Shown: piece by piece, positions 1,837 through 19,125 of the stretch
Position numbering within the stretch: position 1 is the stretch's first letter
Layout: each line of letters opens with the position of its first letter
NCBI RefSeq assembly: GCF_004323735.1
Contig: NZ_CP036455.1
Location: forward strand, 4,707,101 to 4,771,100
DNA: 64,000 nucleotides
Direction of reading: 5' to 3'
Source: Streptomonospora litoralis
GTDB lineage: Bacteria; Actinomycetota; Actinomycetes; Streptosporangiales; Streptosporangiaceae
The notes under the pieces: model-generated
Database searches by the model: none
Told to the model about the DNA's origin: nothing
Seen by the model: the letters and a program-made list of their open reading frames with translations, nothing else
Program-made: the position numbers and the translations under genes

Positions 1837-3555
1837 ATGGACACCGCCGCCGGAGGGGACCTCACAGACGTCACAGCTGCGCTGCGCCGCCGGTGGCCCA
1901 TCGTGGCCGCGGGGACGGCCGCCGGCCTGCTGCTGGCGGTGGCGGCGCTGGTCGTTCTGCCGCAGACCTACGTCTCCACCACGGCCGTGCACGTCCGCCC
2001 CAGCGGCATCCCCGAGATCACCGGCGAGCTGTCCGGGCGGACCAACGGCGAGGTCAACCTCGACACCGAAGCGCAGATCGTGCAGTCGGCCGAGGTCGCC
2101 GCGGCCGCCGCGGAGCGGCTCGGAGCCGACGCCGCCCCCGTCGAGTTGCGGCGCGACGTCGAGGTCAGCGTGCCGCCGAACAGCAGCGTCCTGAACATCG
2201 CGTTCCCCGCCGGGAGCCCGCGGGACGCCCAGCGGGGCTCGGCCGCTTTCGCCCGTGCCTACCTGGAATACCGCGCCGCGCAGGTGGACCGCCAACTCGG
2301 CGACACTCTGTCCGCGCTGGAGAGCGAGGCCGACTCCCGCCGTGCCGAACTAGGCGAGTTGTCCGAAGGCGGGGGTGCCGCCGACGGCGGCCGGGCGCGC
2401 ATCACCGCGGTGCAGAACGAGATCACCGAACTGAACAAGGCGATCCACCCGCTACGCGCGCTGCGCGCATCGATCGTGCCGGCACAGATCATCACCCCGG
2501 CGGGCACCCCGGAGGAGGCGGCCTCGCCGATGCCGCCGCTGTGGCTGGCGGGCGGCGGCGTGCTGGGACTCGCGCTCGGGACGGCCGCCGCCTTCGCCGC
2601 CGACCGGCGCGGCCACCGGCTGCGCTCCGGCCGCGACACCGCGCGCGCCGTCGGCCTGCCCGTGCTGCTGGAGGTGGCCCGCTCGGCGGGCCCGGCGGAC
2701 GCCGGCTCCGGGCGGCCCGCGCAGCGGGCCAATCAGGCCGCGCTCGGGCTGTCCGCGAGCCTCGGGCGCCCCAGCGCCGACTCGGCCGGGGCCGGGAAAA
2801 GCGGGGCGGTCGTGCTGGTTCCGGCCGTCTCCCGCGGCGCCTCCGCCGGGCCGGCGGCCACCGCCCTGGCCGCCGCGCTCGCGCGCATCGGCGCCGACGT
2901 GCTGCTGGTGCACGCCGATCCCGCCCAAGCCGCGCCGGACGGCGCCTGCGGCGCCGGGCTGGGCGACGCCCTGCTCGGCGGCGCCGACCCCGCCCAACTG
3001 GAACGGCGCGACGCGGCGGCTCCCGGACTGCGCATCCTCGACTACGGCGGCGCCGACGCGGCCGACGTGCTGCAGCGCCCGGCCATGGCACAGCTGATCC
3101 GGCGGTTGCGGTCGAGCGCCGACATCGTGGTCGTCGCCACCGCCCCCACGGCCGAGCGCGCCGACGCGTGCGCGCTGGCCCGCGGCGCCGACGCCGTCGT
3201 TCCGGTCGTCGAGTTGGGGCGTACCCGCACGAGTGCCCTGCATGAGGCTCTGGCCGCCTTCGCCGACCTCGGCGTCCCGGCACCGGGCACCGTCGCCACC
3301 GCACCCGGGCGCGCCGAGCGGCGCCGAGCACAGCGGCGGCAGGCCGCCGAACACGCGCCCCTCACGGCGGAGCAGCCGACCGAAGACCCCGCCGAGTCGG
3401 AAAAGACCGGACCCACCGCCGACGAACCGGAAGAGGCGACCGCCCACAGCGCCGCGGCGACCTCCGACTCGGTGGACCAGGGCGACGCATCGGCCGAGTC
3501 CGCGGACGCGGAGCCGCAACCCCAGGACGACACCGACCTGACCCTGCAGCGCTGA
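1837..3555 (+). CDS. Wzz-type polysaccharide co-polymerase with degenerate BY-kinase-like domain
   Basis: This 572-residue membrane protein probably sets chain length or gates export of the polysaccharide made by the neighbouring genes. An N-terminal transmembrane helix (about residues 20-40) precedes a Wzz ectodomain with alpha-helical stretches, then a proline-containing segment and a second helix (about 230-255). The cytosolic remainder has a ParA/BY-kinase fold layout: a beta strand VVLVPA, a loop, LLVHADP, and a Walker-B-like DIVVVATAP. The P-loop position reads GASAGPAA and lacks the GK(S/T) lysine, and the acidic C-terminal tail has no tyrosine cluster, so it is unlikely to be an active tyrosine kinase. 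I chose ATG 1837 because GGAAAGGA precedes it; the upstream ATG at 1774 has no ribosome binding site. Confidence 0.78.
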   Translation: MDTAAGGDLTDVTAALRRRWPIVAAGTAAGLLLAVAALVVLPQTYVSTTAVHVRPSGIPEITGELSGRTNGEVNLDTEAQIVQSAEVAAAAAERLGADAAPVELRRDVEVSVPPNSSVLNIAFPAGSPRDAQRGSAAFARAYLEYRAAQVDRQLGDTLSALESEADSRRAELGELSEGGGAADGGRARITAVQNEITELNKAIHPLRALRASIVPAQIITPAGTPEEAASPMPPLWLAGGGVLGLALGTAAAFAADRRGHRLRSGRDTARAVGLPVLLEVARSAGPADAGSGRPAQRANQAALGLSASLGRPSADSAGAGKSGAVVLVPAVSRGASAGPAATALAAALARIGADVLLVHADPAQAAPDGACGAGLGDALLGGADPAQLERRDAAAPGLRILDYGGADAADVLQRPAMAQLIRRLRSSADIVVVATAPTAERADACALARGADAVVPVVELGRTRTSALHEALAAFADLGVPAPGTVATAPGRAERRRAQRRQAAEHAPLTAEQPTEDPAESEKTGPTADEPEEATAHSAAATSDSVDQGDASAESADAEPQPQDDTDLTLQR

Positions 3556-3670
3556 TCATGACGGCCCAGCCCGCGATCCCCCACCCGACCGCCGGAGGAG
3601 GCCCGGTCCGCACCGGCACCGGCCTCTCGGGCACGCCCCGCGGACGGCGGCGGCAGCCGGGGGCGGCCCG

Positions 3671-5230
3671 ATGAGCCGGTGGTGGGCGGCCGCGGCCGGC
3701 GGCCGGGTGACGGCTGTCCAGGGCGCCGAGGTCGGCTCGGCCGGCGCGCACGCCTCCCGTCCGACCGCCCGGCCCGCCCCCGCGGGGCCCGGATCCGCCG
3801 CAGCGCCGCCCTCCACCGGACGGCCCCCGGGGCGCGCGCCGCTGCGCGGGCGCGTGTTCGCGCCGGGGTGGCCGGTCGTCTGGCTGCTGGCCGGGTACCC
3901 GCTGTGGTGGGCGCTGGGCCTGGGCCGGTTCGCGTTCCTGGTCTTCGCCGTACCCATGGCCGCCGAGCTGATCCGCCGGCACCGGAGCACCGGGCTGCGG
4001 CTGCCGCCGGGCTTCGGCCTGTGGGCGCTGTTCCTGCTCTGGTGCGCCGCCGGGCTCACCCTCATCGGCACCACCGCCCCGGGCACGGTCCCCGGCAGCG
4101 GCGGAGCGGCCGGAGCGCTGGTGCGGCTGGCCGGGTACCTCGCGGTGACCGTACTGCTGCTCTACATCGGCAATTCGAGCCGCCGCGAGCTGGGCGACCT
4201 CGCCGTGGCGCGCGCGCTGGGCTGGCTGTGCCTGGCCACCGTCGCGGGCGGCCTGCTGGGGATGGCGGCGCCGCACTTCGAGTTCACCTCGCCGGTGGAG
4301 ATGGTGCTGCCCGCCGGGCTGGCCGCCGACCCCTACGTGCGGGACCTCATCCACCCCGCAGCCGCCCAGATCATGGACGTACTGGGTTACGAGGCACCCC
4401 GCCCCAAGGCCCCCTGGGAGTACACCAACACCTGGGGCAACATGCTCTCGCTGCTGCTGCTGTGGCTGGTGGCGGGCTGGATGACGACCCCCGCGGCCTC
4501 CGCCGGGACGGCATTCCGTGATGCGGGACGGCCTCGTCCACGCGCCGAGCGGCGGCGCGCCTGGATCGCGGGCGCGGCCATCGTGCTCGCCGCCGCGCCG
4601 GTGGTCTACTCGCTGAACCGCGCCGTATGGGTCGGGCTCGTGCTCACACTGCTGTTCGTGCTGGTCCAGCTGCTGCGGCGGGGACGCGTGGCCGCGGTTG
4701 CGGCCGTGGGCTGCGCCGCCTCGGCCGCGCTGGTCGCGGCGCTTCTCTCCCCGCTGATGGACGTGGTCCAGGAGCGGATGGACAACCCGCACAGCGACGA
4801 CGGCCGCGCGGCCACCAGTATCGCCGCGGTAGAGGCCGCCAACACCTCGCCGGTACTGGGCTGGGGGACTACCCGCGACATGGTGGGCAGCTCGCAGTCC
4901 ATCGCCATCGGCCCGTCACCGGAATGCCCCCGCTGCGGTAACCACACGATCGGCAACAACGGCCAGTTCTGGCTGCTGCTGGTGGCCAACGGCTGGATCG
5001 GCACCGGGCTGTTCCTGGCGTTCTTCGGCCAGGCCCTCTGGCGCTACCGCCGCGACCTGACGCTGATCGGCTCGGCCGCCCTGCTCTCGGTGCTGCTGCT
5101 GTTCTGGTACATGTTCTTCTACGTCGCGCTCACGGCGCCGCTGGCCGTCTCGATGATCGGCGTCGCCGTGCTGTGGCGGCGCGCTACCGATCCGGGCGCC
5201 GCCCCCGCCGTTTCGGAGGGCGCGCGGTGA
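3671..5230 (+). CDS. O-antigen ligase/polymerase family membrane protein (Wzy-like)
   Basis: This 519-residue protein has many hydrophobic segments (from about residue 60 to 505) and a large extracytoplasmic loop around residues 370-430 with a CPRCG motif and the sequence NNGQFWLLL ahead of a late helix, as in Wzy/WaaL-type proteins. Such proteins polymerise or ligate lipid-linked oligosaccharide repeats outside the membrane. Its neighbours (Wzz-like upstream, Wzx-like downstream) favour the polymerase role. The stop overlaps the GTG start of the next gene by four bases (GTGA). The loop is unusually rich in charged residues and RxxxxxP spacing, but I cannot assign catalytic residues. Confidence 0.78.
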   Translation: MSRWWAAAAGGRVTAVQGAEVGSAGAHASRPTARPAPAGPGSAAAPPSTGRPPGRAPLRGRVFAPGWPVVWLLAGYPLWWALGLGRFAFLVFAVPMAAELIRRHRSTGLRLPPGFGLWALFLLWCAAGLTLIGTTAPGTVPGSGGAAGALVRLAGYLAVTVLLLYIGNSSRRELGDLAVARALGWLCLATVAGGLLGMAAPHFEFTSPVEMVLPAGLAADPYVRDLIHPAAAQIMDVLGYEAPRPKAPWEYTNTWGNMLSLLLLWLVAGWMTTPAASAGTAFRDAGRPRPRAERRRAWIAGAAIVLAAAPVVYSLNRAVWVGLVLTLLFVLVQLLRRGRVAAVAAVGCAASAALVAALLSPLMDVVQERMDNPHSDDGRAATSIAAVEAANTSPVLGWGTTRDMVGSSQSIAIGPSPECPRCGNHTIGNNGQFWLLLVANGWIGTGLFLAFFGQALWRYRRDLTLIGSAALLSVLLLFWYMFFYVALTAPLAVSMIGVAVLWRRATDPGAAPAVSEGAR

Positions 5231-6465
5231 ACGGCGAGACGACCTACCTGACCGGCCTCGCCGAGGTGCTGTGGCCGTGCGGCGGACTCATGGGGCGGGC
5301 CGACCCCGCGGCGGACGCCCCCGGCACCGGGCGCAGACGCGGGGACGGCAACACCCGCGCTTACGTGCCGGTCCCCTCGGCGCACAACCCGCGGGTCATC
5401 CTGCCGGTGGCCGACCGCCACGCCGCCGCCCGCGCCGTCACCGCGTTCGCCCAGCGGCACTCGCTGCGCGAGCGGCTGCGCGCGGCCGCTCTCACCTCCG
5501 CCTTCGCCAGCGGCGTGGCGCCGCTGCTACTGCGCGACCGGCTGCACGTCGGGCCTGGCCACACCATCGAGCACGAACTGTCGGCCGCGCTGGACCGCCG
5601 CGTCGTCATCGCCGTGCACATCGGCCCGCCGCGCGCCAACCGCAAACCGGTCCTGCTACTGCTGACTCCGAACGGACGGGCCGTGGGCTACGCCAAGATC
5701 GGCGTCAACGACCTCACCTCCCGCCTGGTGCGCGCCGAAACCCACTCGCTGGCGCGGCTGGCCGAATCCCGGCTGCGAGACGTCACCGTGCCGCGGCTGC
5801 TGCACGAAGGCGAGTGGAACGGCCACCCGCTGCTGGTGCAGGACGCGCTGCCGGTCGGCGGCCAGACCGACCGGCCGACGCGGCGCCAACTGCTGCGCTG
5901 CGTCCTGCAGATCGGCTCCCTGGAGCCGGTGCGGGTGCTGCCGCTGGCCCGGAGCCCCTACCGGGCGGAGTTGGCCGAGCGGATCGCCGCGCTGGGTGAG
6001 CGTCCCGAGACCGCGCCGTTGCGCGCCTGTCTGGACCGGCTGCCCGACGTGCGGTTGCCGTTCGGCGCCTGGCACGGCGACCTGACCCGGTGGAACGTCG
6101 CCACCACGCCGCGGCGCGCCTTCGTCTGGGACTGGGAGCGGCTCGCCTTCGGGGTGCCGCTGGGCTTCGACGCGCTGCACTACGAGCTCAACGAGTGCGT
6201 GCAGCTGGGTGTCCACCCCGGTGTGCACCGATGGCTGGACACGGGGGCGCGCCTGCTGCGCGACCCGCTGATCACCGGCGCAGGGCTGGTGCCCGGCACC
6301 GAGGCCGCGGTCATGGCGCTGTACCTGATCGATCTGGCGACCCGCTACCTGCAGGACCGCCAAGCCGAGGCCGGCGGGAGCCTCGCGGCCGTCGACGACT
6401 GGCTGCTGCCCGCACTGGCCGGCTTGGAGGACCGCGCCGCCCGCGAAGCCGGAGAGCCCGGATGA
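5227..6465 (+). CDS. Aminoglycoside-phosphotransferase-fold kinase in polysaccharide cluster
   Basis: This 412-residue protein carries the APH/choline-kinase catalytic signature WHGDLTRWN (HGD...N, about residues 283-291) and the metal-binding VWDWERL box about 16 residues later, with a C-terminal helical region. It lacks signal or membrane segments. The GTG start overlaps the stop of the Wzy-like gene (GTGA), so the two are translationally coupled. Related genes occur in actinobacterial capsule-type loci, but the substrate is not known. It could phosphorylate a sugar, a lipid carrier precursor or a polyol. The kinase fold is well supported; the role is open. Confidence 0.75.
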   Translation: MNGETTYLTGLAEVLWPCGGLMGRADPAADAPGTGRRRGDGNTRAYVPVPSAHNPRVILPVADRHAAARAVTAFAQRHSLRERLRAAALTSAFASGVAPLLLRDRLHVGPGHTIEHELSAALDRRVVIAVHIGPPRANRKPVLLLLTPNGRAVGYAKIGVNDLTSRLVRAETHSLARLAESRLRDVTVPRLLHEGEWNGHPLLVQDALPVGGQTDRPTRRQLLRCVLQIGSLEPVRVLPLARSPYRAELAERIAALGERPETAPLRACLDRLPDVRLPFGAWHGDLTRWNVATTPRRAFVWDWERLAFGVPLGFDALHYELNECVQLGVHPGVHRWLDTGARLLRDPLITGAGLVPGTEAAVMALYLIDLATRYLQDRQAEAGGSLAAVDDWLLPALAGLEDRAAREAGEPG

Positions 6466-6753
6466 GCGCCGCCCGCCCCCGGCGAGGGCACTGCGCGCCT
6501 CCCGCCGGGCGCGACCTCCACCACCGGTGAGCACGAGCCCGGCCGCCACCCCCTCCCCGGTTCCGCCCCGACCTCTCTGAAGACAAGGATGCCGCCCGTG
6601 ACCTCCCCCCTTCCTGCCGACCGGCGCTCGGGCCCCCCGCGCCGGGAGCCGCCGATCCGGCGCCCACCGCGCACCGGCGCCCACCGCCCCCTCCCCACGG
6701 CCTGCGCTGCCACCCGCTGTGAACGAAGGCGGAAGTTCCACGGAAGGGACCCG

Positions 6754-7629
6754 ATGACCAACTCCACCGCACGCCGACTGCCGTTTCCCGAGCCGGTCAA
6801 GCACTCAGTCCGCTCGGTGCACTCCGCACTGGCGCAGGCCACCCGAGAAGCGCGGGCGCTGCCCACCTTCATCATCGCCGGTGCGCAGCGCTGCGGGACG
6901 ACGTCGCTGTTCCGGGCGCTCGTCCAGCACCCGCAGGTGGCCGGTCCGCCCCTGCGCAAGGGGGTGCACTACTTCGACACCGGCTACGCCCGCGGCATCG
7001 GCTGGTACCGCGGGCACTTCCCGCTGCGCGCCCTGGTGCGCTCGGGCAGCGGCCGCACACGCATCGAAGTGGGCGAGTCCAGCCCCTACTACCTCTTCCA
7101 CCCGCTGGCGGCCGAGCGGCTGGCCCGGGACCTGCCCGGGGTGAAGGTGGTGGTGATGCTGCGCGACCCCGTGGAGCGCGCCTACTCCGCGCACAGCCAC
7201 GAACGGGCCCGCGGGTTCGAGAGCGAGCCCTTCGAGCGGGCCCTGGAGCTGGAGCCCGAGCGGCTGCGCGGCGAGGAGGAGCGGCTGCGCAGCGACCCCG
7301 GCGCGTGGTCTCACGCGCACCAGCATCAGGCCTATCTCTCGCGGGGCCGCTACGCCGAGCAGTTGCGGCGGCTGGAGGGACACCTGGGCCGCCACCGGGT
7401 GCACGTCGTCGAGAGCGAGGCGTTCTTCACCGATCCCGAACGGGTGTTCACCGGGGTGGAGGACTTTCTCGGCGTCGACCACTGCGACCGGATCCGGTTC
7501 AGCCGCCACAACGCTCGCCCCCGCCGGCAGATGCCCGAGCGGCTGCGGGCGCGGCTGTCGGACCACTTCCTCTCCCCCGACGAAGACCTCGCCCAATGGT
7601 GGGGCCGCACCCCGGCGTGGCGCGCATGA
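6754..7629 (+). CDS. PAPS-dependent sulfotransferase
   Basis: This 291-residue soluble protein should transfer sulfate from PAPS to a carbohydrate or related acceptor. The 5'-phosphosulfate loop GAQRCGTTSLFRAL lies near residue 40 and the 3'-phosphate site RDPVERAYSAHSH near residue 138, the standard spacing for this family. The late FSRHNARPRR segment is also typical. ATG 6754 follows GGAAGGGA at a good distance; an in-frame ATG at 6589 would add 55 low-complexity residues. Its stop overlaps the start of the flippase gene (ATGA). With cysD, cysN and cysQ nearby it is a strong candidate for decorating the polysaccharide with sulfate. Confidence 0.87.
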   Translation: MTNSTARRLPFPEPVKHSVRSVHSALAQATREARALPTFIIAGAQRCGTTSLFRALVQHPQVAGPPLRKGVHYFDTGYARGIGWYRGHFPLRALVRSGSGRTRIEVGESSPYYLFHPLAAERLARDLPGVKVVVMLRDPVERAYSAHSHERARGFESEPFERALELEPERLRGEEERLRSDPGAWSHAHQHQAYLSRGRYAEQLRRLEGHLGRHRVHVVESEAFFTDPERVFTGVEDFLGVDHCDRIRFSRHNARPRRQMPERLRARLSDHFLSPDEDLAQWWGRTPAWRA

Positions 7630-9218
7630 GCACGGCCGAATACCGCCGCGCGGGCCTGGGGCGGGTCGCCCGCGGCAGCGCGCTGAACATGGGCGGGGCC
7701 GTGGCCGGCGCCCTGGTGAACCTGGGCATCGTCGTGGCGGTCACCCGCGGGTTCTCAGCGGACACCGCCGGCGTGCTGTTCTCGGCCACCTCGGTCTTTT
7801 TGATCGCGTCCGCGGTGGCCAACCTCGGCACGTCCAACGGGCTGGTCTACTTCCTCGCCCGGCTGCGCGCCCGCGGAGCCGGGCACGCCGCACCGCGCGT
7901 CCTGCGTACCGCGCTGGTGCCCGCCGTGGCGGCGTCGGTGCTGGGCGGCGCCGCGATGTTCGCGCTCGCCGACGACCTCGCCGCCCTGGTGGGCGAGCCG
8001 CAGGCCGAGATGTACCTGCGCCTGCTCGCCGCGTTCCTCCCGTTCGCGGTGGTGACCGACGCGGCGCTGGCCGCCACCCGCGCCTACCACGAGATGCGCG
8101 CCGGCGTGCTGCTGGAGAAACTCGGCCGCCCGCTGGGGCAGCTCGTCTTGATCAGCGCGGTGGCGCTGACCGGCGGTGCGGGGCTGCTCACGGTCGCCTG
8201 GGCCGGACCTTACCTGCCGGCTGCGGTGCTGGCGTGGTGGTGGATGCACCGCATCGTCGCCCGGTACCGCGGTGATGCGAGCGGCACGTCGGGGGGCGCC
8301 GCTCCGGTGCCGGCGCCCCCCGACTCACCGGCACCGGCGCGGCCGCGCACCGCTGCCGGAGCCGGCGTCGAGGAGGCCGACCCGCGGACGTTCTGGGCGT
8401 TCTCACTGCCGCGTTCGGTCGCCAGCATCGCCCAACTGGGCATCCAGCGGATCGGCATCGTGCTCGTCGCCGCTCTGGCGGGCGCCGCCGAGGCGGCCGT
8501 CTTCACCGCCGCCACACGCTTCATGGTCGCCGGGCAGTTCGCCGCCCAGGCGCTCCAGTTCGCCGCCGAACCGCGGCTCGCCGAAATGCTGGCGGTCGAC
8601 GACCGGCGGGGGGCCAACACCCTCTACCGCTCCGGCACCGCCTGGCTCATCTGTTTGACCTGGCCGATATTCCTCCCCGCGATCGTCTACGCCCCCCTGC
8701 TGATGCAGCTGTTCGGGCCGCGGTACACCGAGGGTGCCGTCGTGCTCGTGGTGATCTCCCTGGCCCAGCTGCTGTCGGCCGCGCTGGGGATGGGCGACCT
8801 CGTACTGACCATGACGGGGCGCACCCGGCTCAACCTCGCGAACAACCTGCTGGCCCTGGCCGCCGACGTGGCGCTGTGCCTGCTGCTGGTGCCCTGGACC
8901 GGGGCGACCGGCGCGGCGGCCGCCTGGGCCGGCGCCATCGCGGTGCGCAAAGTGCTGCCGCTGGTGCAGCTGATGCGCTCGCACGGGCTTCACCCGTTCG
9001 ACCGCAGGTGGGTGCTGGCCGCGGTGAGCTGCCTGGTGTGGTTCGGCGGCGTTCCGCTACTGTGCGCGTTCGCGGTGGGCACGGGGCCGGTGTCTTTCGC
9101 GGTCGCGCTGACCGCCGGCTCGGCGGGCTTCCTGGCGACCCTCTGGCGCCTGCGCGACCCCCTTGAACTGGACGGACTGCTGCGCCGCGGCACCGCACGG
9201 GGCGGCGGCACCGACTGA
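7626..9218 (+). CDS. MOP-superfamily polysaccharide flippase (Wzx-like)
   Basis: This 530-residue polytopic protein has about 12-14 predicted membrane segments in the MATE/Wzx layout, beginning with a SALNMGGAVAGALVNLGIVV first helix. A Pro/Ala-rich cytosolic loop near residues 220-255 separates the two halves. Family members move undecaprenyl-linked repeat units across the membrane. The ATG start overlaps the stop of the sulfotransferase gene by four bases. An ORF extending to 7305 is only an upstream read-through. MviN/MurJ is a possible alternative, but the neighbourhood of Wzy, Wzz and glycosyltransferases argues for Wzx. Confidence 0.82.
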   Translation: MSTAEYRRAGLGRVARGSALNMGGAVAGALVNLGIVVAVTRGFSADTAGVLFSATSVFLIASAVANLGTSNGLVYFLARLRARGAGHAAPRVLRTALVPAVAASVLGGAAMFALADDLAALVGEPQAEMYLRLLAAFLPFAVVTDAALAATRAYHEMRAGVLLEKLGRPLGQLVLISAVALTGGAGLLTVAWAGPYLPAAVLAWWWMHRIVARYRGDASGTSGGAAPVPAPPDSPAPARPRTAAGAGVEEADPRTFWAFSLPRSVASIAQLGIQRIGIVLVAALAGAAEAAVFTAATRFMVAGQFAAQALQFAAEPRLAEMLAVDDRRGANTLYRSGTAWLICLTWPIFLPAIVYAPLLMQLFGPRYTEGAVVLVVISLAQLLSAALGMGDLVLTMTGRTRLNLANNLLALAADVALCLLLVPWTGATGAAAAWAGAIAVRKVLPLVQLMRSHGLHPFDRRWVLAAVSCLVWFGGVPLLCAFAVGTGPVSFAVALTAGSAGFLATLWRLRDPLELDGLLRRGTARGGGTD

Positions 9219-9249
9219 GGCGACCCGGATGCCGCATCCCATCGTGCGA

Positions 9250-9287
9250 CATAACACAAAGCAACAATGCCAATACGTTTTGTTATG
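9250..9287. promoter_or_regulatory. AT-rich inverted repeat upstream of the Alg14-like gene
   Basis: CATAACA (9250-9256) is repeated inverted as TGTTATG (9281-9287), and the dyad extends inward with two mismatches. It sits in a short AT-rich island between the flippase stop and the next start (9301), unlike the surrounding DNA. It may be an operator or an internal promoter element; no regulator is identified. Confidence 0.45.
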
Positions 9288-9300
9288 CCATGATGGCGGC

Positions 9301-11502: not shown

Positions 11503-13347
11503 CTACCCCAGGCCGCGTTCGTGGAGCTCGCGGGCGCGCTTGCGCGCGTCCTCGGCCAGTTCCATCGCCTCGTCGATGGCCTCGCGGGCCTGGCGCGGGA
11601 CGTTGACGTAGCGGTCGTCGGCGGCGTCCAGGTAGCCGCGGGCGGCGTGCCGGTCGCGCAGGACACGGAAGTCGCAGGTCGGCGCGGTGATGCCGTCCCA
11701 CAGCTTGACGGCGCGGATCCGGTCGTACTTGCGCAGCGTCTCGGGGATGTCGGCGTACCACTCCCGAGTGGCCTGCGGGTCGCCCGGGATGGGGACGGTG
11801 CCCATCTCACCGATCATGATCGGCTTTCCGGGGTCGATGCCGTGCTCGGGCCCCTCCCGCTGCAGCCACTCATAGGCCGGGCGCAGCGCCTCTTCGAAGG
11901 TGTCGACATGGTCCCAGTGCGGCTGCAGCTCGCAACCGGTCATGTTGTACGCCTCCCAGCTGATCCAGTCGACGTAGTCGTTGCCCGGCCACAGGCTCGG
12001 CAACCGGTGCAGGTTGCCCTCCCAACCGGTGACGTTCCAGACGAAGATCGCGTTGTCGGCGCCGTTGCGGCGGTATATGTCGACGATATGCCGCCAGGCC
12101 CGCACGAACTCCCGGGGCGTGCCGCGGGTGTGGTAGCGCTTGTTCGCGTCGGCCTCGTGGTCGAAGGTGACGAAGAACGGCAGGTCCAGGTCGGCGACCC
12201 GGCGCGCCTGCGAGCGCAGCGAGTCGTCGAAGCGGCCGCGGATGATGTCGCGGTAGCTCTGCACCGGATGCCCGCGCACGTTGAACCGCTTGGCCTCGAT
12301 GTTGGCGTGGATAAAGCGCCCCTGCTCGGCCAGGCGGCGCTCCTTCGGCGTGGGCACGCGGTGCTGGTCGACGCCGTGCCAGGTGTAGACGATGTCCAGG
12401 CGGCGTCCGGTGGCGCGCTCCAGCGGCCGCACGTCGCCGCGATAGGGGCTGGCTCCCCACCACACGCCGCACTCGGGCTCCAGAATCCTGCTGACCCCGC
12501 ATTCGGGCGAGGGCGACGCTGTCGGTGACGGAGTCGGAGTCGGGGTGGGGCCCGGATATCCCGGGTAACCCGGATGCTCCGGCGACGGCTCGACGCCGAG
12601 TCCGGGCGTCTCGGAGGCCGAGTGCGGTGGGAACACGGTGAACGGCGGAATCAGCTCCGGCGGAGGACTCTGGCCGGGCTCCCCGCCCGACGGCGAGGGC
12701 TTTGCCGGCGGCGAGGGCTCGGGCCCGGAGGGACCGCCCGACTCGGGCGAGGCGGAGGGCGAGGCGTCGGGCTCCGTGCCGGGCGCGGACGGCACGGCCG
12801 ACACGGACGGCTCGCCCGAGGCGCCGGGTGCGGCGGACGGGCTCAAGTTCGAACTCGCCGCGCCGGACGCCGCCGTCGGCGCTCCGGGCACGGCCGACGG
12901 GCGCTGCGTGGCGGACGGACTCGCCTCGTCGGGTGTCTGAGCGGACGAGGGACTCGCCGACGGCGCCGCGGACGCGGACGGCCCAGCGGGAGCACTCGCC
13001 GCCGCGGAGGTACTTGCCTGCCCGGCGGCACCCGGAGGAACCGGGGAGCGCTCGCTCTGCGGCGTGTAGCCGGCGTAGCCGCGCGGCATCGGCGAATCCG
13101 CGGCCGAGGCCCCGGACGCCGCGGGGCTGGGGGCATACGAGCCGTACCGGGTATCGGGTCCGACCGCGTCGGTGCGGTACACGCTCGTACCCAGCACTCC
13201 GGTGGGCGCGCACGCCACCACGGCCACGGTCACCGCGAGCGCCGCGCCGCCGCAGCGCCCGGGCGTGCAGGCGCTCGCCACGCGCGGGACGCCGGATCCC
13301 CGCCTGTCGATCCTGTCGGTCCTGTGGGCCCTCCGTCGTTCCCCCAT
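11503..13347 (-). CDS. Exported GH26-like glycoside hydrolase with long Ser/Pro/Ala linker
   Basis: This 614-residue protein starts with a short basic region and a hydrophobic segment (VTVAVVACA, a possible lipobox-like signal). About 230 residues of Ser/Pro/Ala/Gly-rich linker follow, then a TIM-barrel domain. The domain shows FVTFDHEAD (candidate acid/base glutamate in the HE pair), a RHIVDIYRRNGADNAIFVW stretch and KPIMIGEMG with a candidate nucleophile glutamate, the arrangement of GH26 beta-mannanases and relatives. It may cleave or trim the polysaccharide made by this locus or a plant mannan. Start choice is ATG 13347; a TTG at 13353 is possible. It is transcribed toward the glycosyltransferase gene. 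Confidence 0.72.
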   Translation of the reverse strand: MGERRRAHRTDRIDRRGSGVPRVASACTPGRCGGAALAVTVAVVACAPTGVLGTSVYRTDAVGPDTRYGSYAPSPAASGASAADSPMPRGYAGYTPQSERSPVPPGAAGQASTSAAASAPAGPSASAAPSASPSSAQTPDEASPSATQRPSAVPGAPTAASGAASSNLSPSAAPGASGEPSVSAVPSAPGTEPDASPSASPESGGPSGPEPSPPAKPSPSGGEPGQSPPPELIPPFTVFPPHSASETPGLGVEPSPEHPGYPGYPGPTPTPTPSPTASPSPECGVSRILEPECGVWWGASPYRGDVRPLERATGRRLDIVYTWHGVDQHRVPTPKERRLAEQGRFIHANIEAKRFNVRGHPVQSYRDIIRGRFDDSLRSQARRVADLDLPFFVTFDHEADANKRYHTRGTPREFVRAWRHIVDIYRRNGADNAIFVWNVTGWEGNLHRLPSLWPGNDYVDWISWEAYNMTGCELQPHWDHVDTFEEALRPAYEWLQREGPEHGIDPGKPIMIGEMGTVPIPGDPQATREWYADIPETLRKYDRIRAVKLWDGITAPTCDFRVLRDRHAARGYLDAADDRYVNVPRQAREAIDEAMELAEDARKRARELHERGLG

Positions 13348-13461
13348 GCACAAATAGCTACCATAGGAACAGGTTCAACTACATGGAGTCACAAACCTCG
13401 GCGTGCCGCATCCCGGATAAGTCGGACAGCAACCGGCCACTCCCCCGCCCTCCCCGCTCCC

Positions 13462-14385
13462 TCAGTAACCGAACCGCCCCCGGCCGGCGCAGGTCAGCGC
13501 CGCGACAGTCGTGCGGCCGACCGGACCGAGCCCGCTGCGCCACGCCCCGTCCGGACGCACGCACACCGCCCCGGAGCGGAACCGCATCGGGTTGCCCGAG
13601 ACGGTATGGGCGGGCGACAGCCGCGCCGTGCCTTCGGTGTCGACGGGCAGCGCCCCGTCGTGGCCGGCGAAGTCCGCCAGACCGCGGAACTCGCCCGCGG
13701 GGTCGGCCGCGAAGTCCTCGTAGCGCACCCGCAGGGTGGGCACCCCCGCCGCCGACAGCCGCGCCAGCACCTCGTTCTGCATCGTCCACTGAATCGCGGC
13801 CCGAACGGGCGAGTAGCGGGCCATGTCCTGCTCGGGGCTGGTGCGGGTGGCGTCCGGGCGCGGCACCCGCTTGCCCCATGCGTGCGCCACCGCCCGCGGG
13901 TCGCGCACCACGTGCACCAGGTGCAGCCGGGAGCCGTAGCGGTGGCGCAGGCACGCCGCCAGCGACGCGTGCTTGCTGGAGTCGACGACCACCCGGCAAC
14001 CGCTCACCCGGGCCGCCGCGGCGTACAGGCGGTCGTACAGGCCGGTGTAGCGCGCCAGACGCTCCGCCAGGCGCGCCGGGGGCCGCCCGTTGAGCAGAGC
14101 GGGGACGAAGCGCGTGCGGTCCACGGACGCCTTGAGCGCGAGGACCTCCCAGGGGTCCAGCCGGTCCCATCCGCCGAAGGCCGCCCCGCCGACCGCCCCC
14201 CAGAACCCGCACTCGGCGAACGGCACCCCGCAGCCGCAGGCTTCGCCGTCGATCAGCGCCCTGCGCCACATGTGCACCACCTCGCCGAGCGAGCAGACGC
14301 CGGGCAACTCACCCAGCAGCCGCTCGATCAGCGTGGATCCGGAACGGCCCATGCCGCCGACGAAGAGCAGTTGGAAATCGTCCAC
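13462..14385 (-). CDS. Second PAPS-dependent sulfotransferase
   Basis: This 307-residue protein begins directly with the PAPS-binding loop FVGGMGRSGSTLIERLLGE (residues 8-26). It has a VVDSSKHASLAACL segment and the 3'-phosphate site HVVRDPRAVAHAWGK near residue 160, followed by RYEDFAADPAGEF, all typical of the sulfotransferase superfamily. Two cysteines (CGCG near residue 51) are unusual. It is clearly different in sequence from the sulfotransferase at 6754. It lies just downstream of cysN on the same strand, separated by about 170 bases with an AT-rich patch. The acceptor cannot be read from the sequence, but the position links it to the sulfate-activation genes. Confidence 0.82.
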   Translation of the reverse strand: MDDFQLLFVGGMGRSGSTLIERLLGELPGVCSLGEVVHMWRRALIDGEACGCGVPFAECGFWGAVGGAAFGGWDRLDPWEVLALKASVDRTRFVPALLNGRPPARLAERLARYTGLYDRLYAAAARVSGCRVVVDSSKHASLAACLRHRYGSRLHLVHVVRDPRAVAHAWGKRVPRPDATRTSPEQDMARYSPVRAAIQWTMQNEVLARLSAAGVPTLRVRYEDFAADPAGEFRGLADFAGHDGALPVDTEGTARLSPAHTVSGNPMRFRSGAVCVRPDGAWRSGLGPVGRTTVAALTCAGRGRFGY

Positions 14386-14554
14386 AGGCGCACCCTAGTA
14401 CGGTGCGCACCTAAAAAATCACGATATGGAATCGGACAACGGGCGGAGCCGGTCCCCGCGGCCGGCGCGGCGCCCCGGCGGGGTCGCCGGATCCCTCCGG
14501 CGCTCCCTGACCGGGCGCGGGCGCATCATGCCCGCGGACCGGCTCACGGCCCGA

Positions 14555-15823
14555 TCACTCGGCGCGGACGATCATCCCGGCGCCGACCGTGGTGTTGCTG
14601 CCCTCCTCGATGAGGATGAAGCCGCCGGTCAGCCGGTTGTCCTTGTACTCGTCGGCGAACAGCGGCTGGGTGGCGCGCAGGCTGACCCGCCCGATCTCGT
14701 TGAGGGAGAGGTCGGCGGCCTCTTCGTCGCGGTGCAGCGTATTGACGTCCAACCGGTAGCGGATGTCGCGCGCCACGACCTTGGCCGTACGGGTGGTGTG
14801 CTTGATGATCAGCTTCGAGCGCGGCGTGAGCTTGCGGCTCTCGGCCATCCAGCACACCATCGCCTCGATGTCCTGGGAGACCTCGGGCTGGTTGTGGGGC
14901 CGGCACAGCATGTCGCCCCGCGAGATGTCGATTTCGTCTTCCAGCAGCATCGTCACCGACATGGGCGGGAACGCCTCGGCCAGCTCGCCGTCGGGGGTGA
15001 GGATCTTGGCGATGCGGCTGGTCAGCCCCGAAGGCAGGTGCATGACCTCGTCGCCGGCCTTGAACACGCCGCCGGAGATCATCCCGGCGTAGCCCCGGTA
15101 GTCGTGCAGTGCGGGATCCGCCGCGCGCTGCGGCCGGATGACGTACTGCACGGGGAACCGGGCGTCGATCAGGTTCCGGTCGGAGGCGATGTGCACATGC
15201 TCCAGGTGGTGCAGCATCGAAGAGCCGTCGTACCACGGCATGTTGATGGAGCGGTCCACGACGTTGTCGCCGTGCAGCGCCGAGATGGGGATGAAGGTGA
15301 GGTCGCTGACGTCCAGCTTCGTGGCGAACGCCGTGAACTCCTGCTTGATCTCCTCGAAGCGCTCCTGGGAGTAGTCGACGAGGTCCATCTTGTTGACGGC
15401 CACGACCAGGTGCGGCACCTGCAGCAGGGTGGTCAGGAAGGCGTGGCGGCGGCTCTGCTCCTGCAGGCCCTTGCGCGCGTCGACCAGGATGACCGCCAGG
15501 TCGGAGGTCGAGGCCCCGGTGACCATGTTGCGGGTGTACTGGATGTGGCCGGGAGTGTCGGCGATGATGAAGGTCCGTCGCGGCGTCGCGAAATAGCGGT
15601 AGGCGACGTCGATGGTGATGCCCTGTTCGCGCTCGGCGCGCAGGCCGTCGGTGAGCAGGGCCAGATTCGTCTGCTCCTCGCCGCGGCCGCGGCTGGTGCG
15701 CTCCACGGCGTCGAGCTGGTCCTCGAAGATCGACTTGGAGTCGAAGAGAAGGCGGCCGATCAGCGTGGACTTGCCGTCGTCGACGGAGCCGGCCGTGGCG
15801 AACCGCAGGATGTCTGTACTCAT
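14555..15823 (-). CDS. cysN: Sulfate adenylyltransferase subunit 1 (GTPase) CysN
   Basis: CysN is the GTPase that drives ATP sulfurylase, making adenosine 5'-phosphosulfate with CysD. The 422-residue protein has the GTPase motifs GSVDDGKST (G1), the REQGITID switch, DTPGH (G3) and NKMD (G4), then EF-Tu-like beta-barrel domains. It ends soon after these domains, so there is no fused APS kinase (CysC) as in NodQ-type proteins. ATG 15823 is preferred over 15838. It lies 49 bases downstream of cysD, so the two form an operon. Confidence 0.93.
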   Translation of the reverse strand: MSTDILRFATAGSVDDGKSTLIGRLLFDSKSIFEDQLDAVERTSRGRGEEQTNLALLTDGLRAEREQGITIDVAYRYFATPRRTFIIADTPGHIQYTRNMVTGASTSDLAVILVDARKGLQEQSRRHAFLTTLLQVPHLVVAVNKMDLVDYSQERFEEIKQEFTAFATKLDVSDLTFIPISALHGDNVVDRSINMPWYDGSSMLHHLEHVHIASDRNLIDARFPVQYVIRPQRAADPALHDYRGYAGMISGGVFKAGDEVMHLPSGLTSRIAKILTPDGELAEAFPPMSVTMLLEDEIDISRGDMLCRPHNQPEVSQDIEAMVCWMAESRKLTPRSKLIIKHTTRTAKVVARDIRYRLDVNTLHRDEEAADLSLNEIGRVSLRATQPLFADEYKDNRLTGGFILIEEGSNTTVGAGMIVRAE

Positions 15824-15872
15824 ATGCACGCGTTCCAAAAGGGAAAGGGTGGGGAGAGGGCGGCGCCGGGCT

Positions 15873-16805
15873 CTAGAAGTAGCCCTCGCGCTTGCGGTCT
15901 TCCATGGCCGCCTCGCTGGAGCGGTCGTCGGCGCGCGTCTGGCCGCGCTCGGTGATCCGGGTGGCCGCGATCTCGGCCATGATCTCCTCCAGACCCTCGG
16001 CCGAGGAGCGCACCGCGCCGGTGCAGGTCATGTCGCCCACCGTGCGGTAGCGGACGGTGGCCTCGAACAGCTCCTCGTCGTCGCCGCGGGTGATGAAGGG
16101 GCTGTCGGCGAGCAGAATGCCGTCGCGCTCGAAGACCGTGCGCGCATGCGAGTAGTAGATCGCCGGCAGTTCGAGGTTCTCGCGGGCGATGTAGCCCCAC
16201 ACGTCGAGCTCGGTCCAGTTGGACAGGGGGAACACCCGGATGTGCTCGCCCATGTTGATCCGCGTGTTGTAGACGTTCCACAGCTCGGGGCGCTGGGCCT
16301 TGGGGTCCCACTGGCCGAACTCGTCGCGGAAGGAGAACACCCGCTCCTTGGCGCGGGCCTTCTCCTCGTCGCGGCGGGCGCCGCCGAACGCGGCGTCGAA
16401 GCCGTGCTCCTCCATCGCCTCCAGCAGCGCCGCGGTCTGCAGCCGGTTGCGGCTGGCCCAGCGGCCCGTGGGCTCGACGACCTTCCCCTGGTCGATCTGC
16501 TCCTGCACCGAAGCGACGACCAGCTTGACGCCGGCCTCCGCGAGGCGGCGGTCGCGGAACTCCATGACCTCCGGGAAGTTGTGCCCGGTGTCGACGTGCA
16601 TCACCGGGAAGGGGATCGCGCCCGGCCAGAAGGCCTTCTCCGCGAGCCGCAGCATGACGAGGGAGTCCTTACCGCCGGAGAACAGCAGCACCGGCCGCTC
16701 GAACTCCGCGGCCACCTCGCGCATGATGTAGATCGCCTCGGCCTCCAGGAAGTCCAGCTGGGAGAGCTGGTACCGGCCGAGCGGCGCCGTATTGGCCTGA
16801 ATCAT
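15873..16805 (-). CDS. cysD: Sulfate adenylyltransferase subunit 2 CysD
   Basis: CysD is the catalytic ATP-pyrophosphatase subunit of ATP sulfurylase. The 310-residue protein has the PP-loop SGGKDSLVML near residue 43, the MHVDTGHNFPE motif, the GGARRDEEKARAKER segment and the NWTELDVWGYI motif, and ends with the family's typical KREGYF. Length and ending match the family. It follows cysQ on the same strand with a 47-base gap and precedes cysN. Confidence 0.95.
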   Translation of the reverse strand: MIQANTAPLGRYQLSQLDFLEAEAIYIMREVAAEFERPVLLFSGGKDSLVMLRLAEKAFWPGAIPFPVMHVDTGHNFPEVMEFRDRRLAEAGVKLVVASVQEQIDQGKVVEPTGRWASRNRLQTAALLEAMEEHGFDAAFGGARRDEEKARAKERVFSFRDEFGQWDPKAQRPELWNVYNTRINMGEHIRVFPLSNWTELDVWGYIARENLELPAIYYSHARTVFERDGILLADSPFITRGDDEELFEATVRYRTVGDMTCTGAVRSSAEGLEEIMAEIAATRITERGQTRADDRSSEAAMEDRKREGYF

Positions 16806-16852
16806 GAACCCGCCTCACGCTCCTCTGACGCACACGCGCGGTGGTTGCGCAC

Positions 16853-17644
16853 TCATCCCGCCGCGTGTGGGTCCGCGTCGTCGCGCTCGGCGACGCCGCG
16901 GATACTAGCCAACAACATATTCGACAATTCCGGTCGACAGACAAGAATATCCGGGAGTGACGGGTTGGTCCTGTTGTAGGACAGCTCACTGCCGTCGATA
17001 CGGGAGGTGTGCAGACCCGCAGCGCGCGCCACCGCCACCGGTGCTGCGCTGTCCCACTCGTACTGGCCGCCGGCGTGCACGTAGATGTCGGCGATGCCCA
17101 GCAGCACGGCGCAGATCTTGGCGCCGGCCGAGCCCATGGGGACGATCTCGGCGCCCATCTGCGTGGCCAGGCGCTGCACGAACTCCGGCGGCCGGGTGCG
17201 GCTGGTGGTAATGCGCAGCCGCTGCTCGGTGGGGCGCTCATCGGGCAGCCACGGGGGGTCGACGGTCGATACGGTGCTGCCCTGCGCGGGCAGCGACACC
17301 GCTCCGGCCACGAGTTCGCCGTTCTCCCACAGCGCCACGTGCACGGCCCAGTCGGTGCGGCCCGACTCGGAGAACTCCCGGGTGCCGTCCAGCGGGTCGA
17401 TGATCCACACCCGCCGGGCGCCGAGCCGCGCCTTGTCGTCGATGCCCTCCTCGGAGAGGACGGCGTCGCTGGGGCGCAGGCGGCCCAGACTGGAGAAGAG
17501 GAACTCGTGCGACGTGCGGTCGCCGAGTGTGCGCAGGACCTCGGGCTCGTCGAATCCCTGCCGCGCCCGCAGCCGGAGCAACTGCTGCCCCGCCTCGGTC
17601 GCCAGGTCGCGCGCCACTTCGTGATCGTTACGGATGCTGCTCAC
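16853..17644 (-). CDS. cysQ: 3'(2'),5'-bisphosphate nucleotidase CysQ
   Basis: CysQ hydrolyses PAP, the product left after PAPS-dependent sulfation or reduction, to AMP and phosphate. The 263-residue protein has the inositol-monophosphatase-family metal motifs: a glutamate pair in VLSEEG, IIDPLDGTREF (about residues 85-95) and EWDSAAPVAV near residue 200. The GTG start at 17644 lies five bases after the stop of the polyprenyl glycosylphosphotransferase gene, so it is probably translated from the same mRNA. Placement beside sulfotransferases suggests PAP recycling for sulfation rather than for cysteine synthesis alone. Confidence 0.9.
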   Translation of the reverse strand: MSSIRNDHEVARDLATEAGQQLLRLRARQGFDEPEVLRTLGDRTSHEFLFSSLGRLRPSDAVLSEEGIDDKARLGARRVWIIDPLDGTREFSESGRTDWAVHVALWENGELVAGAVSLPAQGSTVSTVDPPWLPDERPTEQRLRITTSRTRPPEFVQRLATQMGAEIVPMGSAGAKICAVLLGIADIYVHAGGQYEWDSAAPVAVARAAGLHTSRIDGSELSYNRTNPSLPDILVCRPELSNMLLASIRGVAERDDADPHAAG

Positions 17645-17649
17645 CGGCC

Positions 17650-19125
17650 TTAGTACGCTCCCGCTCCGCGGACAACTGCTGACCATGTCTTCCACAGGAT
17701 CTGGACGTCCAGGGTCAACGACCAGTTTTCCACGTATCGCAGGTCCAGACGGACGGATTCCTCCCAGGAGAGGTCCGACCGGCCGCTGACCTGCCACAGT
17801 CCTGTCATGCCCGGTTTGACGACCAGGCGCCGACGAACGTCGCGGCCGTACCGCGCCACCTCGTCGGGCAACGGCGGCCGCGGACCCACAAGTGACATAT
17901 CTCCCCGAACGACGTTGAGCAGCTGGGGGAGCTCGTCCAGCGAATAGCGGCGCAGCCAGCCGCCGAACGCGGTGACCCGGGGGTCGCGGCGCATCTTGAA
18001 CAGTACGCCGTCGTGCTCGTTGGCGAGGCGCAGCCCGGTCTTGAGGTGCTCCGCCTCGACCACCATGGTACGGAACTTGTAGACCGTGAACTCGACACCG
18101 TCCTTGCCCACGCGTGTCTGCCGGAACAGGGCCGGCCCCGGGTCCAGTCCGCGGATCAGCGCAGCCAGCCCGAGCAGCAGCGGAGCCAGCGCCGCCAGTG
18201 CCAGCGCGGCGGCCGCCCGGTCGAACAGCCCCTTGACCACCCGCCGCGCCCCCGCCAGTTCGGGGTGCTCCACGTGCAGCAGCGGCATCCCCGCGACCGC
18301 CCGGATGGTCGTGCGCGGACCGGCCACCTCCATCAGGGCGGGCGCGACCGTCAGGTCGGTGCCGCTCTTCTCCAGCCGCCAGGCCAGCCGCCGCAGCTCC
18401 AGACCGTCCATCTCCGGGCAGGAGAGCACCGCCACCGTGTCGGCGCCCGCTCGCTCGGCCGCCTCGGCCGCCTCGCCGAAGCCGCCCAGCACCGGGCAGC
18501 CGTCGATGTCGCCGGGGCCGATGGGCTCGCCGCTCATCCGGCGCCGGGGCAGGCACACGCCGATGACCCCCATCCCGTGGTACGGCTCGCGGCGGAACTG
18601 GCGCACCAGGTCGCGGGCGGACTCCGGGTGGCCGACCACGACCACGCCGCGCATGCACAGGCCCCGCGCACGCAGCCGGTGCAGCCGCTTGCGCCAGGCG
18701 TAGCGCATGATCAGGGTGCCCAGCACGACGGTGGGCAGCGCCAGCAGCACGTAGCCGCGTGCGACGTCGACCTTGGCGGAGTAGGCGGTGATCGCGACCG
18801 CAGCGGTCAGCACCACGCCGGCGCTGAGTACGCGGCGGAACTCCTCGGTGCCCTGCCCGATGAACCGGCGGGCGTAGCCACCGGAGAACGCGACGACCAG
18901 CACCCACAGGGCGGGCAGCGCCAGCGAGAACAGCAGGTACCAGGGCCCCGCCGACGTGGTCAGCGGGTGGCCGAAGCGGATCTGCAAGGCGGACGCGCCG
19001 GCGAGGACCCCGGCACCCGCGTCGATCCACAGCAGCCCGTGGACATAGGAGCGCATCCACGCGGAGGAGGCGCGCGCGGCCGACGCTCCTGCCGTATGCG
19101 CCGGGACCCGTTCGGTGACGACCAT
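17650..19125 (-). CDS. Polyprenyl glycosylphosphotransferase (initiating sugar transferase)
   Basis: This 491-residue protein should start repeat-unit synthesis by transferring a sugar-1-phosphate to undecaprenyl phosphate. Four N-terminal hydrophobic segments (about residues 25-130) precede a CoA-binding-like domain (GVVVVGHPESARDL), a fifth membrane segment near residue 285 and the catalytic bacterial sugar transferase domain. The domain contains the VYKFRTM, RRYSLDELPQLLNV, MSLVGPRPPLP and KPGMTGLWQVSGRS motifs. ATG 19125 is favoured because the longer frame upstream is basic and low-complexity. cysQ follows with a five-base gap, linking chain initiation to sulfate metabolism in one transcript. 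Confidence 0.9.
   Translation of the reverse strand: MVVTERVPAHTAGASAARASSAWMRSYVHGLLWIDAGAGVLAGASALQIRFGHPLTTSAGPWYLLFSLALPALWVLVVAFSGGYARRFIGQGTEEFRRVLSAGVVLTAAVAITAYSAKVDVARGYVLLALPTVVLGTLIMRYAWRKRLHRLRARGLCMRGVVVVGHPESARDLVRQFRREPYHGMGVIGVCLPRRRMSGEPIGPGDIDGCPVLGGFGEAAEAAERAGADTVAVLSCPEMDGLELRRLAWRLEKSGTDLTVAPALMEVAGPRTTIRAVAGMPLLHVEHPELAGARRVVKGLFDRAAAALALAALAPLLLGLAALIRGLDPGPALFRQTRVGKDGVEFTVYKFRTMVVEAEHLKTGLRLANEHDGVLFKMRRDPRVTAFGGWLRRYSLDELPQLLNVVRGDMSLVGPRPPLPDEVARYGRDVRRRLVVKPGMTGLWQVSGRSDLSWEESVRLDLRYVENWSLTLDVQILWKTWSAVVRGAGAY

What the first reader, a model, noticed from the sequence alone, without database searches (positions are those of the whole stretch)
1837..19125. Candidate sulfated exopolysaccharide locus
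Two different PAPS sulfotransferases (6754-7629, 13462-14385), ATP sulfurylase (cysD, cysN) and the PAP phosphatase cysQ are interleaved with Wzz, Wzy, Wzx, initiating transferase and glycosyltransferase genes. cysQ lies five bases after the initiating transferase gene. The sequence shows the gene set and spacing. That the polymer is sulfated is an inference. Sulfated polymers are rarely described in actinomycetes, so the locus may encode an undescribed one.
Basis: partly seen in the sequence, partly recalled or inferred. Interest (0 to 1): 0.8.

Follow-up and report, generated by a model that had tools for sequence, protein, structure and literature searches.

The report
Actinomycete sulfated-polysaccharide locus around sulfate genes
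An actinomycete carries a conserved set of genes that most likely builds and exports a sugar polymer decorated with sulfate, placed around the cell's own sulfate-activating genes; relatives of this gene set are widespread in actinomycetes, and one was recently reported to be needed for normal spore-case formation.

Summary
The genome (most likely Streptomonospora) has one cysD and no Sat-type sulfurylase. The core order wzz-wzy-kinase-heparan-type sulfotransferase-wzx, with GH26, a second sulfotransferase and GT2, recurs widely and matches the description of wps-1 of Actinoplanes missouriensis (PMC13390465, June 2026), whose knockouts impair sporangia and which its authors propose makes a sulfated polysaccharide. 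So the kind of locus is not undescribed. New here: the cassette surrounds housekeeping cysNDQ at a fixed mfd-pth site, parsimony suggests about five losses with cysNDQ kept, and it is common beyond Actinoplanes. Sulfation itself is inferred, here and in wps-1.

The parts
3..1310 (+). mfd (C-terminal part), left border of the locus
   Evidence: Pfam TRCF and Helicase_C
1774..3555 (+). Wzz / polysaccharide co-polymerase with tyrosine-kinase-like domain (counterpart of WpsK)
   Evidence: PF02706 E=3e-6; TIGR01005 E=8e-17, under its cut-off
3671..5230 (+). Wzy polymerase (counterpart of WpsJ)
   Evidence: PF04932 E=7e-10
5227..6465 (+). APH-type kinase 'u1' (counterpart of WpsI)
   Evidence: PF01636 E=6.5e-7, over cut-off; 9 of 15 aligned members match it; HGD...WN and WDWER invariant in 15 rows; no match when read from 5173
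6754..7629 (+). ST1, heparan-sulfate-type sulfotransferase (counterpart of WpsH)
   Evidence: PF13469, PF00685; profile matches NDST and 3-OST structures E=1e-20 to 1e-17
7626..9218 (+). Wzx flippase (counterpart of WpsG); start uncertain (7596-7626)
   Evidence: PF01554, PF13440; starts
9163..9759 (+). Alg14/PssD-like glycosyltransferase partner; start uncertain
   Evidence: PF08660 E=5e-5, 23.7 bits against cut-off 27
9756..11315 (+). PssE/GT28-C-like plus GT2 glycosyltransferase
   Evidence: PF00535 E=8e-19, PF04101 E=1e-5; PssE model under cut-off; start
11503..13353 (-). GH26 glycoside hydrolase with Ser/Pro-rich linker, probably a lipoprotein (counterpart of WpsE)
   Evidence: profile matches C. 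thermocellum GH26 enzyme (Endoglucanase H) E=4e-19; Pfam GH26 under cut-off; lipobox read by eye
13462..14385 (-). ST2, Sulfotransfer_3-family sulfotransferase (second sulfotransferase, in the role of WpsB)
   Evidence: PF13469 E=1e-13
14555..15838 (-). cysN, ATP sulfurylase large subunit
   Evidence: TIGR02034 E=3e-168
15873..16805 (-). cysD, ATP sulfurylase small subunit
   Evidence: TIGR02039 E=2e-134
16853..17644 (-). cysQ-like PAP phosphatase; GTG start 5 bases after the stop of the initiating transferase
   Evidence: PF00459; TIGR01331 E=3e-32, under cut-off; sequence
17650..19365 (-). initiating polyprenyl-phosphate hexose-1-phosphate transferase; start uncertain (19056-19365)
   Evidence: PF02397 E=1e-64; TIGR03025 E=2e-123, over cut-off; starts
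19608..20294 (-). pth, right border of the locus (followed by rplY, prs, glmU)
   Evidence: PF01195

Best explanation
The locus makes a sulfated, Wzx/Wzy-assembled extracellular polysaccharide and is a variant of the wps-1 kind. CysDN makes APS, the APS kinase beyond mfd makes PAPS, and ST1 and ST2 pass sulfate to positions of an undecaprenyl-linked repeat unit started by the Bac_transf enzyme and extended by the Alg14/PssE-like and GT2 enzymes. Wzx flips it, Wzy/Wzz polymerise it, the GH26 protein trims or remodels it outside, and CysQ removes PAP. The APH-type kinase is an accessory, probably phosphorylating a sugar or lipid intermediate. cysNDQ are housekeeping genes that the cassette sits around, in one direction with initiating transferase, ST2 and GH26. 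Shown here: gene content, kept motifs, conservation, linkage, presence and absence among relatives. Inferred: every catalytic step, sulfation of this polymer, the role of the kinase, and co-transcription.
For: Domains. ST1 motifs: in 117 aligned sequences the G, R, G and T of GxQRxGT and the R, P, R and A of RDPxxRA are invariant. Both GH26 glutamates that align with HEA and IAEF of the solved enzyme are invariant in 8 rows. wzy-u1-ST1 consecutive on one strand in 73 of the 80 best loci; u1 in 78, wzx 76, wzz 70, ST2 57 of 80. ST1 and ST2 co-occur: 33 and 30 of 60 genomes, both in 28. A PAPS-pathway gene lies in the fetched flank of 54 of 80 loci. Single APS kinase 4 kb left of the window, no Sat-type ATP sulfurylase domain. 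L185 has the published wps-1 order for the ten genes I could place: Sat/APS kinase, Wzz, Wzy, u1, ST1, Wzx, GH26, WecG, ST2, GT2. Published: deletion of each wps-1 gene but wpsD lowered spore release, deletion of the adjacent Sat/APS kinase gene was severe.
Against: No chemistry; wps-1 sulfation is also unverified by its authors. The wpsB (second sulfotransferase) mutant formed sporangia of normal look and lost about nine tenths of spore release only. In ST1 the residue aligned with the catalytic Glu of heparan sulfotransferases is Gly (12 of 12 rows of A1, 115 of 117 in the larger set). cysNDQ are kept in relatives without the cassette, and cysC too where its place was covered, so their presence does not prove a dedicated role. 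Six further Sulfotransfer_3 places, five over cut-off, lie elsewhere in this genome, so PAPS has other possible uses. The CysQ match is under the curated cut-off. In the Micromonospora family sample cysN/cysD lie in only 1 of 18 cassette-bearing stretches.
Confidence: 0.75

Rival explanations
1. The link between the polysaccharide cassette and cysNDQ is incidental: cysNDQ is an ancestral neighbour of pth and the cassette merely landed there. The polymer may still be sulfated, but the interleaving means nothing for function.
For: cysNDQ-pth linkage in 20 of 20 relatives with or without cassette; beside pth in 3 of 5 stretches fetched around cysD in Micromonospora genomes, none with the cassette (L149, L150, L152); parsimony counts five changes, all losses from a cassette-bearing root, with cysNDQ in place.
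Against: ST1 and cysD lie within 20 kb in 20 of 21 same-contig genomes; the cassette flanks cysNDQ on both sides with a 5-base junction; in the Micromonospora family sample the APS kinase gene is near in 11 of the 17 cassette-bearing stretches that lack cysN/D.
Confidence: 0.3
2. ST1 and ST2 sulfate something other than the Wzy polymer, such as a lipid-linked oligosaccharide, a glycolipid or a cell-wall polymer, and the cassette is a cell-surface glycolipid locus.
For: Actinobacterial sulfotransferases with known substrates act on lipids and small molecules (recalled). Few transferase genes beside the initiating enzyme, so the repeat unit would be short.
Against: Wzy and Wzz accompany ST1 in 76 and 70 of 80 loci; in wps-1 the wzy, wzz and wpsH (heparan-type sulfotransferase) knockouts share the squashed-sporangium phenotype, though wpsB does not.
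Confidence: 0.15
3. ST1 is not a functioning sulfotransferase (Gly for the catalytic Glu) but a binding or scaffold protein; the polymer is at most singly sulfated by ST2 or not sulfated.
For: Gly where NDST, 3-OST and 3rnl have Glu, 12 of 12 rows of A1 and 115 of 117 in the larger set.
Against: Key PAPS-binding residues are invariant and the neighbouring His is kept in 115 of 117; a dead enzyme would not be expected to keep them.
Confidence: 0.08

Closest known systems
wps-1 cluster, Actinoplanes missouriensis (AMIS_7280-7380 with AMIS_7390), PMC13390465, June 2026
   Same: Same described order of Wzz, Wzy, kinase-like protein, heparan-type sulfotransferase, Wzx; GH26, second sulfotransferase of another family and GT2; Sat/APS kinase family gene next to it.
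   Different: wps-1 as described has a WecG/TagA transferase, a methyltransferase and a DUF4262 gene, not found among the frames scanned here, and no initiating transferase or cysN/D/Q is listed in it. Here cysNDQ lie inside the locus. The Streptomonospora/Nocardiopsis group is not known for Actinoplanes-type sporangia (recalled).
xss cluster for synechan, Synechocystis sp. PCC 6803, PMC8205485
   Same: Wzx/Wzy/PCP cluster with two sulfotransferases of distinct subfamilies; EPS composition with sulfate reported.
   Different: Cyanobacterial, eight glycosyltransferases, own regulators; the words PAPS, APS kinase and cysC do not occur in the text.
Sulfated capsule clusters of Vibrio sp. KMM 8419 (PMC11641403) and Cobetia marina KMM 1449 (PMC11766843)
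   Same: Sulfotransferase genes together with cysN, cysD, cysC (and cysQ in Cobetia) in a polysaccharide locus; the polymer structures are reported there.
   Different: ABC-transporter capsules of Gram-negative bacteria; the Vibrio PAPS genes are second copies, whereas here cysD is the only copy.

Membership tests
wps-1-type locus | wzz-wzy-kinase-like-heparan-type sulfotransferase-wzx in this order on one strand | tested here: met
   Window; published make-up read
wps-1-type locus | second sulfotransferase of a different family | tested here: met
   ST2; whether it is the same subfamily as WpsB was not tested
wps-1-type locus | GH26 glycoside hydrolase | tested here: met
   Pfam alone is under its cut-off
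wps-1-type locus | Sat/APS-kinase gene adjacent | tested here: met
   here separated from the cassette by mfd
wps-1-type locus | WecG/TagA transferase, methyltransferase and DUF4262 genes | tested here: not met
   None among the frames scanned between 1 and 24 kb (shorter frames were not scanned); WecG is present in L185. These genes were not shown to be defining
wps-1-type locus | direct sequence identity with the A. missouriensis proteins | not tested
wps-1-type locus | required for normal sporangium/spore development | not testable with these tools
   Needs mutants
Sulfated polysaccharide locus | product carries ester sulfate | not testable with these tools
   Needs chemistry; also open for wps-1
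Sulfated capsule cluster with dedicated PAPS genes | second, dedicated copies of cysN/cysD/cysC | tested here: not met
   One cysD, one APS kinase, no Sat-type sulfurylase domain in the genome; cysN copies were not searched apart

The most novel reading that the evidence does not exclude
An old, mostly vertically inherited sulfated-polysaccharide system is shared by many mycelial actinobacteria well beyond Actinoplanes, built on a heparan-type sulfotransferase subfamily that lacks the usual catalytic glutamate and on a conserved APH-type kinase; in the Streptomonospora/Nocardiopsis group it has merged with the cell's only sulfate-activation genes, so that polymer making and sulfur assimilation draw on one transcriptional unit.
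Probability: 0.35. Interest if true: 0.75.

Novelty: new variant of a known kind. Interest (0 to 1): 0.55.

Why it matters
The genetic basis of sulfated polysaccharides in actinomycetes was put forward as a possibility, not yet verified, in June 2026 (PMC13390465). The comparison here shows that this type of locus is common: ST1 matches at E<=1e-60 in 109 of 121 genomes of one family sample (91 at E<=1e-100 by my count) and in 16 of the 19 listed members of the window's own family. It supplies a natural control: a Streptomonospora genome (G004) without the cassette that keeps cysNDQ, cysC and the kinase. It also points to a sulfotransferase subfamily whose residue at the catalytic position differs from its animal relatives.

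Tried and rejected
Rejected: that cysD here is an extra, dedicated copy (only copy found). Rejected: that cysNDQ of the family sit beside sulfite reductase (0 of 20 stretches). Rejected as the main history: recent horizontal transfer, since distances of seven cassette genes track those of cysD/N/Q/pth (Spearman 0.79-0.89 over 45 or 55 non-independent pairs; 11 genomes chosen for having the cassette). Left open: whether CysH uses APS or PAPS. Its CC...CxxC pairs are the recalled APS-reductase signature, but NCBIfam is mixed: APS_reductase and PAPS_reductase models both under cut-off, PRK02090 (phosphoadenylyl-sulfate reductase) and TIGR00434 (cysH) over cut-off. Cautions: my 'gt' query (from 9294) started about 150 residues too early and ran over the Alg14-like gene in another frame, so its identities and counts include that overlap. 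'u2' hits of 25-31% may be other GH26-type proteins. The 117-sequence ST1 set includes loci that one search found with the pattern L[RH]KGVHYF, which itself holds the Gly, so 115 of 117 is biased; the 12 rows of A1 were not chosen by that pattern. ST1 matches weaker than about 1e-100 may be paralogues: L193 and L194 have such matches and no cassette. Identities are to the best of the window protein or versions from L049, L052, L054 and L056. No PDB match for the kinase profile. Structure prediction of the kinase was accepted but had not finished at the last poll; no model was used. Papers: PMC13390465: outline, abstract, passages, sections 6 and 16, and part 1 of 2 of section 17; PMC11641403, PMC11766843 and PMC8205485: passages only; all others: search listings only. 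Against the rarity claim, the listing shows Streptomyces EPS preparations reported with sulfate content (PMC9911575, abstract start only). Statements on what is in print rest, in an open-access library only.
Full report
Genome and place. The window is C1:4707101-4771100 of a 5.81 Mb genome in two contigs. Same-genus genomes G001 and G003 have contigs whose lengths (147371 and 188640) equal those of Streptomonospora alba and S. mangrovi records, so the genus is most likely Streptomonospora. The locus lies between mfd and pth-rplY-prs-glmU.

What is there. Plus strand: Wzz with a tyrosine-kinase-like domain, Wzy, an APH-type kinase, ST1, Wzx, an Alg14-like protein and a PssE/GT2 glycosyltransferase. 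Minus strand, in transcription order: initiating transferase, cysQ, cysD, cysN, ST2, a GH26 protein. The two sets converge near 11.4 kb.

Sulfate supply in this genome. PAPS_reduct domains: the window cysD, one CysH next to a sulfite reductase at 3.32 Mb, and a third on contig C2. No Sat-type ATP sulfurylase domain was found, so cysDN is the only ATP sulfurylase found. The only APS kinase is at C1:4702680-4703135, 4 kb left of the window, as the C-terminal part of a protein with a Sat-like N-terminal region. So the genes found for making PAPS lie within about 22 kb around the cassette; further cysQ-like genes were not searched for. If CysH reduces APS, as its cysteine pairs suggest (recalled signature; NCBIfam is mixed), PAPS would serve only sulfotransferases. 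The genome has nine PF13469 matches: three stretches belong to ST1 and ST2, and six further places, five of them over cut-off, lie elsewhere, so the cassette need not be the only PAPS user.

Conservation near by. In 20 relatives fetched around cysD, cysN-cysD-cysQ and pth are together in 20 of 20; both sulfotransferases with wzy and wzx are in 10, and an eleventh (L047) is cut by a contig end. Nine lack the set: L037 keeps only the kinase, L042 and L046 the kinase and a glycosyltransferase, L043 the kinase, ST1 and a stub of the initiating transferase, L048 nothing with mfd next to cysN, and L050, L051, L053 and L055 nothing, where the contig ends about 4, 2, 1 and 11 kb beyond cysN. For G024, G029 and G036 no ST1 was found anywhere in the genome at E<=1e-30, for G007 only a weaker one on another contig. 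On a midpoint-rooted tree of CysN, CysD, CysQ and Pth (19 of the 20 plus the window) parsimony gives a cassette-bearing root and five changes; seven supports are 56-80, but G004, the Streptomonospora without the cassette, sits inside nodes of 96 and 100. The lone kinase beside cysN in four genomes that lost most of the cassette is unexplained.

Linkage. In 60 genomes (own included) ST1 was found in 33 and ST2 in 30, both in 28 (Fisher p 1e-9, genomes not independent). ST1 and cysD: both in 32, one contig in 21, within 20 kb in 20; the exception is G038 at 42 kb; the other 11 are on different contigs, in assemblies of about 140 or more contigs. ST2 and cysD: both in 29, one contig in 24, within 20 kb in 23. 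Four ST1 hits (G007, G019, G048, G054) are weak and kept in the counts.

Spread. A scan of named genomes with the ST1 alignment gave 410 relatives; the best 80 were kept. By title these are actinobacteria: Streptomonospora, Nocardiopsis, Marinactinospora, Actinomadura, Microbispora, Nonomuraea, Sphaerisporangium, Acrocarpospora, Micromonospora, Blastococcus, Modestobacter and others. Of the 80, u1 is near in 78, wzy 76, wzx 76, wzz 70, GH26-type 66, ST2 57, cysN/D/Q 38, cysC 23, any PAPS gene 54; 26 have none in the fetched flank, which is at most 10 kb and shorter at contig ends. For one of those 26 (L103) cysD lies about 14 kb away, if C1 is the same contig. In four Micromonospora genomes (L094, L098, L100, L135) cysD is on other contigs or about 0.9 Mb away. 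In a class sample 35 of 196 genomes have ST1 at E<=1e-60, 27 at E<=1e-100 by my count; in the family of a Micromonospora genome, 109 of 121 and 91. Of 20 stretches from 19 genomes that I chose from long contigs of that family, 18 have wzy-u1-ST1-wzx, 12 of these 18 have cysC and 1 has cysN/cysD (L192); L193 and L194 have an ST1 match and no cassette.

Match to published work. PMC13390465 describes wps-1: WpsA GT2, WpsB Gal/GlcNAc/GalNAc-type sulfotransferase, WpsC WecG/TagA, WpsD DUF4262, WpsE GH26, WpsF methyltransferase, WpsG Wzx, WpsH heparan-type sulfotransferase, WpsI kinase-like, WpsJ Wzy, WpsK Wzz, next to AMIS_7390, a sulfate adenylyltransferase/APS kinase family gene. The authors conclude that all genes but wpsD are needed for normal sporangium formation; the wpsB mutant looked normal and released about a tenth of the spores; the AMIS_7390 mutant was severely defective. 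The unnamed locus L185 shows the same order: Sat/APS kinase, Wzz, Wzy, Wzx, GH26, WecG and ST2 by Pfam (Wzy under its cut-off), and u1, ST1 and GT2 by tblastn; I did not look there for the methyltransferase or DUF4262. Best identities of L185 to the window protein or one of four relatives' versions are ST1 60%, u1 48%, wzy 48%, wzx 47%, ST2 57%. The window locus has no WecG, methyltransferase or DUF4262 among the frames scanned, and has an initiating transferase and cysNDQ.

The sulfotransferases. ST1's profile matches a bacterial sulfotransferase (3rnl, E=6e-33) and animal NDST and 3-OST structures. In the alignments the Glu two residues before the His or Gln of the solved enzymes (catalytic, recalled) faces a Gly in ST1. 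It is Gly in all 12 rows of A1 and in 115 of 117 sequences of a larger set, which is biased because one search pattern held that Gly; the His is kept in 115. The substrate and catalytic base may therefore differ. ST2 is a Sulfotransfer_3 protein with weak matches to tyrosylprotein and aryl sulfotransferases.

Verdict. A real, conserved locus, very likely for a sulfated extracellular polysaccharide, and a variant of the recently described wps-1 kind. The claim of an undescribed kind does not stand, and cysDNQ are shared housekeeping genes rather than cassette-owned. Sulfation remains to be shown chemically.

Noticed in passing
L037 12062-13288; L042 9975-11270; L043 11062-12330; L046 10403-11614: The APH-type kinase gene stays between mfd and cysN in four genomes that lost most or all of the rest of the polysaccharide cassette, with an open frame; why is unknown.
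   Followed up: partly
window 6754-7629 (ST1 residues 69-72 of A1): Gly stands where heparan-type sulfotransferases have the catalytic Glu, in 12 of 12 rows of A1 and 115 of 117 of a larger, partly biased set; the neighbouring His is kept.
   Followed up: partly
G000:C1:4776401-4777030, about 5 kb right of the window: Another Sulfotransfer_3 gene matching the whole profile (E=7e-46); a similar strong match lies in G004, which lacks the cassette.
   Followed up: no
G000:C2:80670-81287: A PAPS_reduct-domain gene on the second contig, possibly a DndC-like DNA phosphorothioation gene (guess).
   Followed up: no
window 43198-45924: One 908-residue open frame matches SecD parts and two SecD_SecF_C stretches, so SecD and SecF look fused.
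   Followed up: no
window 49471-50520: A 349-residue protein with an Ion_trans domain, like a single-domain voltage-gated channel.
   Followed up: no
L164 14671-17700 (G016): Three ST1-like genes in tandem on the contig of cysNDQ in one relative, and three more on another contig, suggesting duplication of the sulfotransferase.
   Followed up: no
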